Source: Candidatus Poribacteria bacterium
GTDB taxonomy: Bacteria > Poribacteria > WGA-4E > WGA-3G
Direction of reading: 5' to 3'
Length of the DNA: 64,000 nucleotides
NCBI GenBank assembly: GCA_022821495.1
Contig: JAJEDN010000118.1
Location: 1-64,000, forward strand
The position numbers were made by a program, and so were the translations under genes. Numbering within the stretch: the first letter of the stretch is position 1; each line of letters starts with the position of its first letter. The notes below the pieces were generated by a model. That model had not been told where the DNA came from, did not search any database, and was given only the letters and a program-made list of their open reading frames with translations. Below, in pieces: positions 15,864-20,108 of the stretch.

Positions 15864-15931
15864 GTCAGGATAATGGGTATCCTTTAATGAAAAGCAACCC
15901 ATTGAAGGAGTTTCCCATGTATTATCCTGAC
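15864..15931. repeat. Inverted repeat at the transposase start
   Basis: GTCAGGATAAT (15864-15874) is the reverse complement of ATTATCCTGAC (15921-15931), whose second arm lies in the first codons of the transposase gene. The hairpin would include AAGGAG and the ATG, so it could hide the ribosome site, as found in some insertion sequences. Confidence 0.55.
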
Positions 15932-16447
15932 ATGAAAGATTATATCACATTTTTGTTTTCTTTACTTGACGAGTTTCTTGAAAGCAAAGAAATCGCTACC
16001 TATCAAGGTAGACCCAAGATTTATTCAGATGCTTCCTTAGTCGTCTTTTACACCCTAATGATGTTGAAGCAAATCAATGCGATTCGCGGGCAGCATCAGT
16101 GGTTATACACGCATCCGATTATGCTTGAAAGGCTCCGGTTGTCATCTTGTCCCTCTCGTTCGACACTCGGTCGCCGATATAAAGCCTTGGCAGTGTTTGT
16201 CAGTGAGTTTTCTGAGTTCATTGTAGATTCAGGCGTTTCAAGGAGATACGGTTTTTCACACGATCTGGCTTATGAAGATAAGAGTTTATTCAAAGCAAAG
16301 GGTTCCGTCTGGCACTTCAACCCTTTTTATTTCTCGGATGGAATATCTACAGCATGGCAGTACAAAATTAACGTTAGCACTTCATTTATCTTTTCAAGTT
16401 TCCCAAAATTTTACACACCCACTCTAAAGTTTTCGTTTGACATTTAA
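15917..16447 (+). pseudogene. Truncated DDE-type IS transposase
   Basis: The start is ATG 15917, six bases after AAGGAG (15905-15910), in place of the upstream in-frame ATG 15887. The first 130 or so residues read like an IS4/IS5/IS1182-type transposase N-terminus, with a helical DNA-binding part, SRSTLGRRYKAL, and LAYEDKSLFKAKGSVWH, probably leading into the first catalytic aspartate region. After SVWH (about 16315) the frame continues as low-complexity unrelated sequence and stops, so the catalytic core is gone. It marks a recombination junction at the left edge of the accessory pair at 16.8-20.1 kb. Confidence 0.65.
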
Positions 16448-16466
16448 ACAGAAAACATGGTATAAT
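16437..16466 (+). promoter_or_regulatory. Consensus sigma-70 promoter upstream of the GIY-YIG-like/vWA pair
   Basis: TTGACA at 16437-16442 and TATAAT at 16461-16466 are both perfect consensus hexamers with an 18-base spacer. Transcription would start near 16473, giving a leader of about 350 bases before the next gene. No other recognisable gene lies in that leader (16467-16820). Confidence 0.65.
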
Positions 16467-16820
16467 TTCTTATAAAGTTTAGGCAGTTTTAAACATAGTA
16501 CTCCATTGGTGTTCTGTCCACTATAAAATGAAAGTATTTAGAATGCGTCTGGCTTCCGAGTTGTGCTCGCGATCTCTGCCCTCTTCAACTTTGGCGTGAA
16601 AAAGCACAAGCGTGCAGGGGTGCTGCGATTTTCTGCTTCGGTATAAATGTACTGTTGGGTTTAGTTACGTCCCAAACCGAAACTCGAAAACAGGTCCTGG
16701 AAACTCACGCAGATTGTCCGAATTTTTAATCTTTATTATCCCACTTGTAAGTCACGTTCGCCTTCCCAGCATAGTTTGCCAAGTCTTGCTATACAAGGTA
16801 ACACCATCGCCCACCGCAGA

Positions 16821-19064
16821 ATGGTACTGAATACTGAATCAATGTTTGAGGAAACGACTATAGGATATGTCTATATTTTAGAAAATGATGCAATGCCGGG
16901 CTTAATAAAAATCGGCAAGACATCCCGTGATAGTACGGAGCGAGCAAGGGAACTCTCAGCTACAACAGGAGTGCCAACACCTTTTGAGGTTGCTTTTGAG
17001 TTATTCTCCGAGAGATATGAAATGCTTGAAAGGGAGATGCATAACAGACTTGCTAAGTACCGTGTTGCTTCTAACCGTGAGTTTTTTAAGTATCCAGTGA
17101 ATAAAGCAATCGCTTTGCTTGAAAACCTTGACACTGAAAAGCAAGACGAGATGAGACCAGAAGCCTTTAGAGATAAAAAGAACCTTATAACTCGCGTATC
17201 GAATTTTTTCAAGCAGTTCTTGCGACCTAATACTAAATCTGATGACTCCCCCAAAATTAAGAGTGATAATAGGGTACCTACTGAAACGGTAGAAAGAGGC
17301 AGCAAGTCCGTTGACCTAACACCACCAGCCAACCCGCCAAAACCGAACCTCAACTATATAATCAAGGACAGACCTTTGCAAAACGAATACAGGGAAAATG
17401 CGGTTGAGCCAAGTTTGAATGGCAAACCTTATTATAGTGAAGAAAATGGCTTCTATTGGGCTGCGAATCACCAAGGCATAGTTGAATGCTTGCCGCAACA
17501 TATCAAGCGAATTATCCATAACGAGGAATTAGAAATTGCCTCTACTCGTGACCAACTCGAACAAGAACTCAATGCTTTGGATGAAGAAATAGTTAAGTTA
17601 GAAGAACAGAAAGGCGAATGTGAACAGGAAATCAAAGGACGCTTTCAAGAACTCGCCGAGAAAAAAGAAGAATTAGCAGGACTTGAGGTCCAATTGAAAA
17701 CGCTATCGATAAACAGATTAGAGCCTATTGCAACTGAAGGAATGTCTGAAGATTCCAACCCTGAATTCCTCAATACTGCGACTGTTGAAAATATACCTGA
17801 CAATCCACTCACAAAGCGGTTTGAAGAAGAAATTAACGATTTGCATCAGGAAAAAGCACAGATAGAACAAGCAATTGAGGAAAAGAACCAAGCATTGGCA
17901 GATAGCAAAGAGGAACTTGCAGGACTTGAAGTCGAATTACAAGGTCCAACAGAAGCAGAATTAAAGTCGATCACCTTGGGCACCTCCGCTCACGACCCTA
18001 CGTCTACCAAACACCGAGCTTCAGGTATAAGTATTATCACTGCGATTATCTCTACTATATTCTGTGTTTTCCTTGCCACTTATCTTTTCTTTTTTTACGC
18101 TTCGGCCGTTGATAAAGCCTTCTTTCTAAACACAGAAGCAATCCAAGCCCAATTAGCTCAGGGCACCTATGCTGGAGTCAATGATGTTGTTAACCCAAGG
18201 GCTTTATTCAAGGCTTTCCAAGGTGAGTGGAATCTGTTCGTCGTTATGTTTCCATTTGTTTTTTTAGCCTTTGCAATTGTGCTCGACTATTTTTGGGAAC
18301 AAAAAAAATGGGGATATTTAGTAGCAACTGTATTAGCAGCTCTTACATTGATATTTGATGGCATACTTGCAATTCAGATTTCGCAAAAAATACACCAAGC
18401 CAAAATTCTCATGGGACAAGAGACAGAACAATGGCGCTTCAGAATGAATGATCTCAATATGTGGACAGTTATTTTTTGCGGTTTTGTTGTCTCGCTGTTA
18501 GTCAGTATTACTTATCATGTGATGAATCAGCGATGGAAAGCTGCGGATCCTATCCAAGAAAAATCTGAGGCAGAGAACATACGCGAGTCAGAAATAAAAA
18601 ACGAGAAAACACAACGTGAGACACGAATTGCTGTCTTAAAAGCCGGAATGGAGAATTCGCAAAATGAGATTGAGCATCTTAAGGAAAGAGAGAGAACCAC
18701 AGAAGAAAAAATTGTAAAAGCCGTTAGGACCCCAATTGATAGCCAAATTGCCATCTTGAATGTCCAAACAGAGAACTTAGAGAGCGAGATTGAACAATTC
18801 AAGAGTAGAGATACAAATCTCCAACAGAAGATCGACAAAACGCGATCAAAAATTGAGGAATTGTTCGGGAACTTTAACAAACGAGTGGTCAACCGCAATA
18901 AAATGGAGTCGCAAGTTAACCAATTCTTGAATGGATGGTGCCGTTTCGTTGCCCACAGGGGCGATGGTACCTCTGAGGTATCCGACGAAATCGATAGAGT
19001 TAAACAAGTTGCAAATGATACACTCGATCTCTATTACCAAGGTGTTCCTGATTATTCCGATTAA
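16821..19064 (+). CDS. T5orf172/GIY-YIG-like, coiled-coil, four-TM membrane protein
   Basis: Residues are numbered from an upstream TTG at 16776. The N-terminal domain (30-115) matches the T5orf172/Meiosis family of GIY-YIG-like nucleases: GYVYILEN, LIKIGKTS, an arginine helix (ERARELS), LEREMH and NREFFKYP. A proline-rich linker and a long coiled coil (250-390) follow. Four hydrophobic segments come next (about 417-441, 485-507, 512-535, 562-583). A second charged coiled coil (590-700) and a C-terminal tail end the protein. Start is uncertain: ATG 16821 or ATG 16842, neither with a clear ribosome site. It is followed by a vWA-like lipoprotein 144 bases downstream. I do not recognise the complete architecture; membrane-tethered nucleic-acid or stress sensing is inference. 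Confidence 0.75.
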   Translation: MVLNTESMFEETTIGYVYILENDAMPGLIKIGKTSRDSTERARELSATTGVPTPFEVAFELFSERYEMLEREMHNRLAKYRVASNREFFKYPVNKAIALLENLDTEKQDEMRPEAFRDKKNLITRVSNFFKQFLRPNTKSDDSPKIKSDNRVPTETVERGSKSVDLTPPANPPKPNLNYIIKDRPLQNEYRENAVEPSLNGKPYYSEENGFYWAANHQGIVECLPQHIKRIIHNEELEIASTRDQLEQELNALDEEIVKLEEQKGECEQEIKGRFQELAEKKEELAGLEVQLKTLSINRLEPIATEGMSEDSNPEFLNTATVENIPDNPLTKRFEEEINDLHQEKAQIEQAIEEKNQALADSKEELAGLEVELQGPTEAELKSITLGTSAHDPTSTKHRASGISIITAIISTIFCVFLATYLFFFYASAVDKAFFLNTEAIQAQLAQGTYAGVNDVVNPRALFKAFQGEWNLFVVMFPFVFLAFAIVLDYFWEQKKWGYLVATVLAALTLIFDGILAIQISQKIHQAKILMGQETEQWRFRMNDLNMWTVIFCGFVVSLLVSITYHVMNQRWKAADPIQEKSEAENIRESEIKNEKTQRETRIAVLKAGMENSQNEIEHLKERERTTEEKIVKAVRTPIDSQIAILNVQTENLESEIEQFKSRDTNLQQKIDKTRSKIEELFGNFNKRVVNRNKMESQVNQFLNGWCRFVAHRGDGTSEVSDEIDRVKQVANDTLDLYYQGVPDYSD

Positions 19065-19208
19065 TTACGATTTTGCTCTACTATGTAAACATCTTGCCCA
19101 CTGTCAAGGTGGGACTTTTATCACAGTTATTTCGGGGTGCGAAACTCAGAGAAAAATATACCCAGCACCCACGACACAAATTGCCCAACTTGCGTAAAGG
19201 AGTATCAC

Positions 19209-20108
19209 ATGGAAAAAGATATTAAGGTTTTGGCAAGAGTATTCGCTGTTACTCTTTTGTTGTTAACAGTTGGGTGCACAAGCGACAAATCAGATGCCAA
19301 GAATATTTCATCAGAAACATCACTTATGAAACCGGTAAATATTATTGTTATTATTGACACCTCTGACCGGATTTCCCAAACGAAGAATCCTCATCAAGTA
19401 AAGAAGGATATTAAAATTACAGAAAGTATCGTTAATATGTTTGAAGAAAAATTCGTACGCCCAAATCTGTATATCGGTTCTAAAGACACACTTGCTTTTG
19501 TCGTCCCCGAACAGCCAAATGTTGATCCAATTCAACAGCAAGCATTAATGAATCTCAAAATTTGGCCGACACCTGAGCAAAGAGCAGGTGGAGCTCCAGA
19601 ATTTAAAAAAATGAAAACCAACCTTATTGGAGCAATCGACGAATTGTACCAATCTGTCAGTAAACAGAAGGTGTTCACTGGATCGGATGTTTGGAAGTGG
19701 TTTCGAGATAGTGCAGAAGTCTACCTAAAGCCTGACGCTCTTAACTACATCATTTGCCTCTCCGATGGTTACCTTGATTTCAACCACAATATTCAAATCG
19801 AGCGGCCTAAGAGAACCTACATTTCTTACCGTCAAGTCGCCAAGTTACGCGAGGCCCCAAACTGGAAACAGAAATTTCACACTGAAAAACATGGTTTGTT
19901 GGAAATTGGAAAAGACTTCAGCAATTATAACGTGAAGTTCTTGATGGTTGAAATCACACATCGGCACATGCTTGACTTGGAAATTGTTAAAGAATATTGG
20001 CAGACTTGGTTGAAATCAATGGGCATCACAGATTCCCAATTCCTATCTACGCAGGATGATCCGCAAATCGTCATACGGAAAATTATAGAGTTCACTTCAA
20101 CAGAGTAA
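19209..20108 (+). CDS. vWA-like lipoprotein
   Basis: About 299 residues. A lipoprotein signal peptide ends in the lipobox LTVGC (Cys 23), followed by a polar linker and a domain starting NIIVIIDTSDR near residue 45. That opening resembles a von Willebrand A strand with an incomplete MIDAS (DxS present, third Ser/Thr missing). The rest alternates strands and helices, including YIICLSDGYLDF near 180, where vWA folds carry the second metal-site loop. ATG 19209 is set by AAAGGAG at 19196-19202. It probably sits on the periplasmic face of a membrane as a partner of the preceding protein. Base composition matches that gene and is poorer in G+C than neighbours. Confidence 0.65.
   Translation: MEKDIKVLARVFAVTLLLLTVGCTSDKSDAKNISSETSLMKPVNIIVIIDTSDRISQTKNPHQVKKDIKITESIVNMFEEKFVRPNLYIGSKDTLAFVVPEQPNVDPIQQQALMNLKIWPTPEQRAGGAPEFKKMKTNLIGAIDELYQSVSKQKVFTGSDVWKWFRDSAEVYLKPDALNYIICLSDGYLDFNHNIQIERPKRTYISYRQVAKLREAPNWKQKFHTEKHGLLEIGKDFSNYNVKFLMVEITHRHMLDLEIVKEYWQTWLKSMGITDSQFLSTQDDPQIVIRKIIEFTSTE

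What the first reader, a model, noticed from the sequence alone, without database searches (positions are those of the whole stretch)
16437..20108. AT-rich two-gene island: GIY-YIG-like membrane protein plus vWA-like lipoprotein
Seen: perfect TTGACA-18-TATAAT promoter, a protein with T5orf172 domain, coiled coil, four membrane helices and second coiled coil, then a lipoprotein with DTSDR motif; broken transposase on the left. Known: T5orf172 domains are GIY-YIG-type nuclease relatives often encoded by phages and mobile elements. Inference: a membrane-spanning conflict or sensing system, the lipoprotein reading a periplasmic cue and the cytoplasmic GIY-YIG-like domain acting on nucleic acid. 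I do not know a named system with this pair.
Basis: partly seen in the sequence, partly recalled or inferred. Interest (0 to 1): 0.75.

Follow-up and report, generated by a model that had tools for sequence, protein, structure and literature searches.

The report
Membrane nuclease with periplasmic partner
A pair of neighbouring bacterial genes makes a membrane protein carrying a DNA-cutting domain and a matching protein outside the inner membrane; the same membrane pair recurs in other phyla with different cutters or inside CRISPR immune loci, which points to an unnamed antiviral module that acts at the cell envelope.

Summary
Gene A (16842-19064) is a 740-aa protein: GIY-YIG (T5orf172) domain, coiled coil, four membrane helices, coiled coil. 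Gene B (19209-20108) is an exported vWA-fold lipoprotein.

The genome is a Candidatus Poribacteria relative. In that phylum 22 of 85 genomes have the membrane core of A, and all 22 have B. The nuclease is exchangeable: GIY-YIG fused, GIY-YIG as a separate upstream gene, or a PD-(D/E)XK (HSDR_N_2) domain fused at the same place. The window's clade is nested among PD-(D/E)XK versions, so the nuclease was swapped.

The core-plus-vWA pair without a nuclease also occurs elsewhere: in 19 of 396 Bacteroidota genomes (adjacent in 19/19; a separate HSDR_N nuclease gene nearby in 8), in a second other phylum next to CARF and Cas6 genes, and as one fused protein inside a Runella type III-B CRISPR locus. 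One Bacteroidota copy sits beside BREX genes. The window copy lies in a site that in sister genomes is empty or holds Zorya-like or Tiamat-like genes.

Best reading: an unnamed, envelope-anchored, nuclease-armed anti-phage module, working like Zorya or SNIPE but homologous to neither. Defence rests on genomic context; signal direction and nuclease activity are untested.

The parts
16437..16466 (+). Perfect sigma-70-type promoter, TTGACA-18-TATAAT
   Evidence: 12/12 match; hexamers conserved in sister loci L040 and L041
16467..16841 (+). 375-nt leader between the promoter-like site and the ATG of gene A; function unknown
   Evidence: within a block about 94% identical to L040 and L041; no Rfam match
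16842..19064 (+). Gene A: GIY-YIG / coiled coil / 4 TM / coiled coil protein, 740 aa (alternative starts ATG 16824, TTG 16776)
   Evidence: dN/dS 0.13-0.20
16860..17129 (+). GIY-YIG (T5orf172) nuclease domain, aa 7-96, the swappable part
   Evidence: Pfam PF10544 2.4e-15; PADLOC PDC-S57 1.1e-31 and PD-Lambda-1 1.7e-7; residues conserved in 17 homologues
17409..17516 (+). Start of the conserved core (YYSxxNGF motif), the point where split genes begin
17538..17942 (+). First coiled coil (aa 233-293 and 322-367)
   Evidence: AlphaFold2 helices
18024..18542 (+). Four-helix membrane region (aa 395-567)
   Evidence: hydropathy and model; a 4TM-only profile finds the Runella protein at 43 bits with no false hit among 889 ORFs
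18357..18359 (+). Asp506, acidic residue inside the third membrane helix
   Evidence: D in 35 and E in 7 of 42 core sequences from three phyla
18564..18875 (+). Second coiled coil (aa 575-678)
18924..18944 (+). F-x-x-G-W-C-R motif after the second coiled coil
   Evidence: G698 in 42/42 and W699 in 41/42 sequences
19090..19113 (+). Terminator-like hairpin in the 144-nt A-B gap
   Evidence: consensus match only
19209..20108 (+). Gene B: vWA-fold lipoprotein, 299 aa
   Evidence: Foldseek hits are vWA domains; adjacent to gene A in all complete loci
19275..19277 (+). Lipobox cysteine (Cys23)
   Evidence: sequence; a Cys after the signal peptide is visible in most relatives
19356..19370 (+). DTSDR, MIDAS-like motif (aa 50-54); last position Arg instead of Ser
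   Evidence: D50, S52 and R54 each in 44/45 sequences
19761..19769 (+). SDG loop (Asp186), third MIDAS-like position
   Evidence: D186 and G187 in 45/45 sequences
15887..16447 (+). Transposase remnant left of the pair
   Evidence: PF13737 E 0.0097; no second copy in the genome
14782..20275 (.). Whole insert in the RraA-cysK site (Uma2 gene, IS remnant, A, B)
   Evidence: the interval is about 190 bp in G017, G023 and G030

Best explanation
An envelope-anchored DNA-targeting defence system. Shown by sequence: A has a nuclease domain at its N-terminus, a four-helix membrane region and long coiled coils; B is an exported vWA-fold protein; the membrane core and B form one conserved unit, whereas the nuclease is exchanged. 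Inferred: A sits in the inner membrane with nuclease and coiled coils in the cytoplasm, and B is held at the membrane in the periplasm and binds the short periplasmic loops of A. When a phage disturbs the envelope or injects DNA, B and the membrane helices (with their buried acidic residue) change state, and the coiled coil releases or positions the nuclease, which cuts the incoming DNA near the entry site. In type III CRISPR versions the same transducer works without its own nuclease, together with CARF proteins.
For: Strict pairing: 22/22 Poribacteria genomes and 19/19 Bacteroidota loci with gaps of -80 to 32 bp. Core and vWA are one polypeptide in Runella: hhalign E 1.3e-15 and 2.2e-17. Nuclease swap: T5orf172 against HSDR_N_2 at the same place, at least two changes on the core tree, a single HSDR clade rejected with p-AU 8e-49. 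A separate HSDR_N nuclease lies near 8/19 Bacteroidota pairs. Catalytic-type residues are conserved in both nuclease types. Defence neighbours: type III-B CRISPR, CARF + Cas6, Card1 + Cas_NE0113, BREX PglZ/BrxL, and a site shared with ZorA/ZorB-like and TmtA-like genes. D/E506 conserved in 42/42. Zorya and SNIPE show that membrane-anchored nucleases of this layout defend cells (PMC11890865, PMC13190303).
Against: No experiment. In 14/19 Bacteroidota loci the neighbours are a TerB-like protein, a response regulator and a TPR histidine kinase, which also fits a stress response. In type III CRISPR the trigger is intracellular, so a periplasmic sensor is not obviously needed there. The third MIDAS serine is an arginine, so metal binding by B is doubtful. 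Several B proteins lack a lipobox. The full model of A has low pTM (0.37), so the domain arrangement is not predicted.
Confidence: 0.5

Rival explanations
1. Inside-out membrane effector. The conserved core plus vWA is itself the killing or dormancy part: a cytoplasmic trigger (a CRISPR second messenger through CARF partners, or DNA bound by the nuclease domain) opens or reshapes the membrane, and the nuclease is a sensor or a second effector.
For: The part shared by all phyla is the membrane core plus vWA, not the nuclease. Type III CRISPR uses membrane effectors gated from inside (Csx23, PMC11014256; the CorA-type effector, PMC10600005). An acidic residue inside TM3 is conserved in 42/42.
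Against: The exchange of unrelated nucleases at the N-terminus is the usual pattern of an effector, not of a sensor. No second-messenger-binding domain was found in A or B.
Confidence: 0.25
2. An envelope-stress or maintenance response, not defence against phage: the vWA protein senses cell-wall state and the linked genes handle DNA damage or signalling.
For: In 14/19 Bacteroidota loci the pair sits with TerB-like, response-regulator and TPR-kinase genes.
Against: Patchy distribution (25/85 and 19/396 genomes), decayed copies, a variable insertion site, nuclease swapping and CRISPR/BREX neighbours.
Confidence: 0.15
3. A barrier to incoming plasmid or transformed DNA rather than to phages, with the membrane nuclease cutting DNA that crosses the envelope by other routes.
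For: The membrane nuclease anatomy fits DNA entry of any kind.
Against: Nothing specific; the defence genes sharing the site (Zorya-like, Tiamat-like) belong to anti-phage families.
Confidence: 0.07

Closest known systems
SNIPE (PD-Lambda-1; PMC13190303)
   Same: Membrane-anchored GIY-YIG nuclease with a long helical part; the window's GIY-YIG matches the PD-Lambda-1 model in its nuclease region.
   Different: SNIPE has one N-terminal TM, DUF4041 and a C-terminal nuclease, with no periplasmic partner. Here the nuclease is N-terminal, there is no DUF4041 hit, there are four TM helices and a coiled coil, and a vWA protein is strictly paired.
Zorya (PMC11890865)
   Same: Inner-membrane complex with a long cytoplasmic helical tail, a periplasmic partner domain, a functionally important charged residue in the membrane, and exchangeable nuclease modules. 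Zorya-like genes occupy the same genomic site in sister genomes.
   Different: No MotA/ZorA or OmpA/ZorB homology in A or B; the periplasmic partner is a separate vWA protein; the nuclease may be fused.
Kiwa (KwaA/KwaB; summarised in PMC12904381)
   Same: Two-gene, membrane-embedded, DNA-directed defence.
   Different: KwaB binds DNA and does not cut it; no Kiwa model matched A or B in PADLOC.
Type III CRISPR ancillary membrane proteins (Csx23, CorA)
   Same: Membrane proteins encoded in type III loci, as in Runella and G091.
   Different: Those bind a nucleotide messenger and lack a vWA partner; no Pfam CorA match here.
PDC-S57 (PADLOC phage defence candidate)
   Same: The GIY-YIG domain matches PDC-S57 (E 1.1e-31).
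   Different: The match covers only the first ~100 residues; the membrane core and gene B have no PADLOC match apart from low-complexity coiled-coil hits.

Membership tests
GIY-YIG / T5orf172 nucleases | Profile match above cut-off | tested here: met
   57.3 bits against cut-off 20
GIY-YIG / T5orf172 nucleases | Conserved motif residues (VYIL, KIG, R, E, H, REFF) | tested here: met
   conserved across 17 homologues
GIY-YIG / T5orf172 nucleases | Nuclease fold by structure comparison | tested here: inconclusive
   strand/helix order fits and local pLDDT is about 90, but Foldseek on the whole chain returned coiled coils only
GIY-YIG / T5orf172 nucleases | DNA cleavage activity | not testable with these tools
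   needs the purified protein
SNIPE | DUF4041 domain between TM and nuclease | tested here: not met
   no DUF4041 hit up to E 1
SNIPE | N-terminal TM and C-terminal GIY-YIG | tested here: not met
   reverse order, four TM helices
Zorya | ZorA (MotA/ExbB-like) and ZorB (OmpA-like) genes | tested here: not met
   no MotA_ExbB, OmpA or Zor model in A or B; TolQ/ExbB appear only at E about 1 in the fold search
Kiwa | KwaA and KwaB | tested here: not met
   no Kiwa model matched in PADLOC
von Willebrand A domain (gene B) | vWA fold | tested here: met
   vWA domains of several families at probability 0.97-1.00
von Willebrand A domain (gene B) | Complete MIDAS (DxSxS...T...D) | tested here: not met
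   DxSDR: third serine replaced by arginine in 44/45 sequences
Bunzi (TerB-containing defence system) | BnzA/BnzB homologues | tested here: inconclusive
   TerB-like neighbour in 14/19 Bacteroidota loci, but no Bunzi model matched; presence of Bunzi models in that library was not verified
Type III CRISPR accessory genes | Encoded within type III loci | tested here: inconclusive
   met in Runella, L144 and L166; no CRISPR genes recognised among the neighbours inspected around the Poribacteria copies

The most novel reading that the evidence does not exclude
A previously undescribed periplasmic-vWA / four-helix transducer family that reports events at the envelope to interchangeable intracellular nucleases and has also been recruited into type III CRISPR loci, linking entry sensing at the membrane with adaptive immunity.
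Probability: 0.35. Interest if true: 0.85.

Novelty: new variant of a known kind. Interest (0 to 1): 0.72.

Why it matters
Few defence systems are known to act where phage DNA crosses the envelope (Zorya, Kiwa, SNIPE), and how they sense entry is unsettled. This is an unnamed family with the same layout, present in about 5% of sampled Bacteroidota and 26% of Poribacteria genomes. It comes in natural versions with different nucleases and in a single-chain version inside a CRISPR locus. Those variants allow domain-swap and complex-formation tests in culturable hosts, and they ask directly whether a membrane module can serve both innate nuclease defence and type III CRISPR.

Tried and rejected
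Two-gene system confined to phages or plasmids: rejected; no match in viral contigs, phage records match only the GIY-YIG domain, one plasmid hit. Gene A as a SNIPE homologue: rejected, no DUF4041 and reversed order. Gene A as ZorA: rejected. The Uma2 gene as part of the system: rejected, because it flanks the RraA gene in sister genomes with and without the pair. Coiled-coil similarity as the reason for the Runella match: tested with a profile of the four membrane helices alone, 43 bits and no false hit among 889 ORFs. Structural RNA in the leader: no Rfam match. Whole-chain fold search of A gave only coiled-coil matches. Database structure search with the GIY-YIG part by sequence found nothing. 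A first core tree had one row out of frame and was replaced. Two accessory-gene surveys of type III CRISPR were not held, nor was the 2022 survey that named Bunzi, so prior listing of this pair could not be excluded.
Full report
WHAT IS IN THE WINDOW. Gene A runs from ATG 16842 to 19064 (740 aa) and gene B from ATG 19209 to 20108 (299 aa), same strand, 144 bp apart. A carries a T5orf172/GIY-YIG domain at aa 8-94 (E 2.4e-15). AlphaFold2 (32 sequences, mean pLDDT 74, pTM 0.37) gives a compact beta-beta-alpha-beta-alpha-beta-alpha unit there with pLDDT about 90, then coiled coils (233-293, 322-367), helices at 395-428, 465-486, 491-523 and 538-567 that match four hydrophobic stretches, and a second coiled coil (575-678). 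B has a signal peptide with a lipobox and no Pfam, PADLOC or convincing PHROG match. Its AlphaFold2 model (pLDDT 85) matches vWA domains of TFIIH subunits, pilus-tip adhesins, CMG2 and von Willebrand factor. Both genes are under purifying selection, dN/dS 0.12-0.20. The promoter-like site at 16437-16466 is exact and keeps both hexamers in two sister genomes, but it lies 375 bp upstream of A. The transposase remnant is a weak match and unique in the genome.

PAIRING IN THE HOME PHYLUM. Named relatives found by a scan of 84,980 species are all Candidatus Poribacteria. Of 85 held genomes of the phylum, 22 have the membrane core of A at high score and all 22 also have B; three more have only B remnants. 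Wherever the locus is complete, B follows A with a gap of -4 to 144 bp. Some copies are decaying: an in-frame TAG in G029, frameshifts in G012 and G070, a truncated A in G035.

THE NUCLEASE IS EXCHANGEABLE. Three arrangements occur. In G000, G014, G017, G047 and G074 the GIY-YIG domain is fused to the core. In twelve loci (L048-L056, L110, L112, L114) it is a separate gene of about 130 aa directly upstream, often overlapping the core gene. In G012, G028, G041, G043 and G061 the N-terminus is instead a PD-(D/E)XK domain (HSDR_N_2, E 6.5e-10 to 6e-9 above cut-off in three, weaker in G012; G061 by alignment) with its E, D, E-x-K and Q residues conserved. The window protein and the G028 protein are 69% identical over the core yet carry unrelated nucleases. 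On the core tree the window's GIY-YIG clade is nested among PD-(D/E)XK proteins by starred branches; at least two changes are needed, and holding the PD-(D/E)XK proteins together is rejected (p-AU 8e-49). The window's GIY-YIG domain is closer to a stand-alone GIY-YIG gene (about 71% identical) than to that of the split systems (about 54%), and groups with it in a small tree of modest support (86/86). The simplest reading is capture of a nuclease domain by a constant membrane module.

THE MEMBRANE CORE PLUS vWA OCCURS FAR AWAY. A tblastn search with B in plasmids gave one hit, Runella sp. SP2 pSP2_2 (E 4e-11). The 704-aa protein is core, fifth membrane helix and vWA in one chain, without a nuclease, inside a type III-B CRISPR locus with cmr genes, Csx2, Csx20, cas1 and cas2. 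Profile comparison gives E 1.3e-15 for the four-helix part and 2.2e-17 for vWA. A profile of the four helices alone scores 43 bits, with no false hit among 889 ORFs. A genome of another phylum (G091) has an operon of a Cas_APE2256 CARF protein, Cas6, core and vWA on a 4.4-kb contig. In an even draw of 396 genomes of the phylum of G145, a SusD-rich genome taken as Bacteroidota, 19 have B, and in all 19 the core lies directly upstream (gaps -80 to 32 bp). Near these pairs lie a TerB-like gene (14), a response regulator with a TPR histidine kinase (14), a stand-alone HSDR_N nuclease (8; E 4.2e-15), an endonuclease/exonuclease/phosphatase-like gene judged by sequence motif only (3), Card1 and Cas_NE0113 (one locus), and PglZ plus BrxL of BREX (one locus). 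So the same nuclease superfamily that is fused to the core in Poribacteria is a separate neighbour in Bacteroidota.

THE SITE. The window copy sits between an RraA-like gene and cysK. In 20 genomes of the genus with both flanks on one contig, the interval is about 190 bp (empty) in three and 1.9-22.6 kb in the rest. It holds this system in four, large clusters with ZorA/ZorB-like, tubulin-like and Hsp70- or actin-like proteins in eight, Hsp70/GrpE-like clusters in three and a Tiamat (TmtA)-like gene in two. This is a variable site occupied by several defence-like systems. In the sister genome G014 a Tiamat-like gene stands where the window has the transposase piece.

CONSERVED RESIDUES. In 42 core sequences from three phyla, position 506 inside the third membrane helix is D (35) or E (7); F418, Y419, G547 and G698 are invariant. 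In 45 B sequences D67, Y147, G158, D160, D186, G187, W264 and W267 are invariant, and D50, S52 and R54 occur in 44. The usual third serine of a MIDAS site is arginine, so metal binding is uncertain.

HOW IT PROBABLY WORKS. Shown by sequence: the parts, their pairing, the swap, the context. Inferred: nuclease and coiled coils in the cytoplasm (an even number of membrane helices; a fifth helix carries vWA across in Runella), vWA in the periplasm. The closest working analogies are Zorya, where a membrane complex with a long cytoplasmic tail and a periplasmic domain recruits a nuclease (PMC11890865), and SNIPE, a membrane-bound GIY-YIG nuclease that cuts phage DNA during injection (PMC13190303). 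By that analogy the vWA protein and membrane helices sense or locate phage entry and the nuclease cuts the DNA. The main rival is that the membrane core is itself the effector and is triggered from inside, as type III CRISPR membrane effectors are; the nuclease-free CRISPR copies favour this, the nuclease swaps speak against it.

WHAT IT IS NOT. It is not SNIPE (no DUF4041, reversed order), not Zorya (no ZorA/ZorB homology) and not Kiwa (no match). PADLOC recognises only the GIY-YIG part, as candidate PDC-S57. The core and B have no Pfam, NCBIfam or PADLOC family of their own. Prior listing in surveys that were not held cannot be excluded.

LIMITS. No phage protection, nuclease activity, topology or A-B contact was measured. 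Nothing here fixes the direction of signalling. Neighbour counts in Bacteroidota rest on 19 loci, many from related families, without an enrichment test.

Noticed in passing
L115 2288-14092; same cluster in L116, L120, L125, L130, L132: Eight-gene cluster in the RraA-cysK site with a ZorB-like OmpA protein, a ZorA-like protein with long coiled tail, a tubulin-like protein, an actin-like protein and a lipoprotein; looks like an undescribed Zorya relative.
   Followed up: partly
L129 420-16540; also L121: Second version of the Zorya-like cluster with a Tubulin_2 protein (E 9.7e-44), an Hsp70-like protein and a protein with a vWA-like DVSGS motif.
   Followed up: partly
L040 4771-8526; L124 1831-5535: Sacsin-type ATPase with a weak C-terminal HNH match, matching Tiamat TmtA models (E 1.4e-64), in the same site and next to the A-B pair.
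   Followed up: partly
L117 1822-8257; L122 1800-9115; L127 2501-9227: Cluster of Hsp70-like proteins with a GrpE-like membrane protein in the same site.
   Followed up: no
L139 409-1942; L140 5865-7263: Stand-alone 259-aa GIY-YIG gene followed by a second conserved gene; likely kin of the donor of the window's nuclease domain and perhaps a two-gene system of its own.
   Followed up: partly
window 19090-19113: Terminator-like hairpin in the A-B gap of the fused version, while split versions have gaps of 9-16 bp.
   Followed up: no
L168-L183: Bacteroidota operon that adds a TerB-like gene, response regulator, TPR kinase, DUF4236 or DUF6804 proteins to the core-vWA pair.
   Followed up: partly
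L172 12001-12498; L176 435-878: Unnamed family on the opposite strand near two of the Bacteroidota pairs, no Pfam or PADLOC match.
   Followed up: no
L046 7606-10575; L047 6760-9884; L041 8744-11077; L111 6862-8729: Decaying copies of gene A (truncated, frameshifted or with an in-frame stop), mostly beside an intact gene B.
   Followed up: partly
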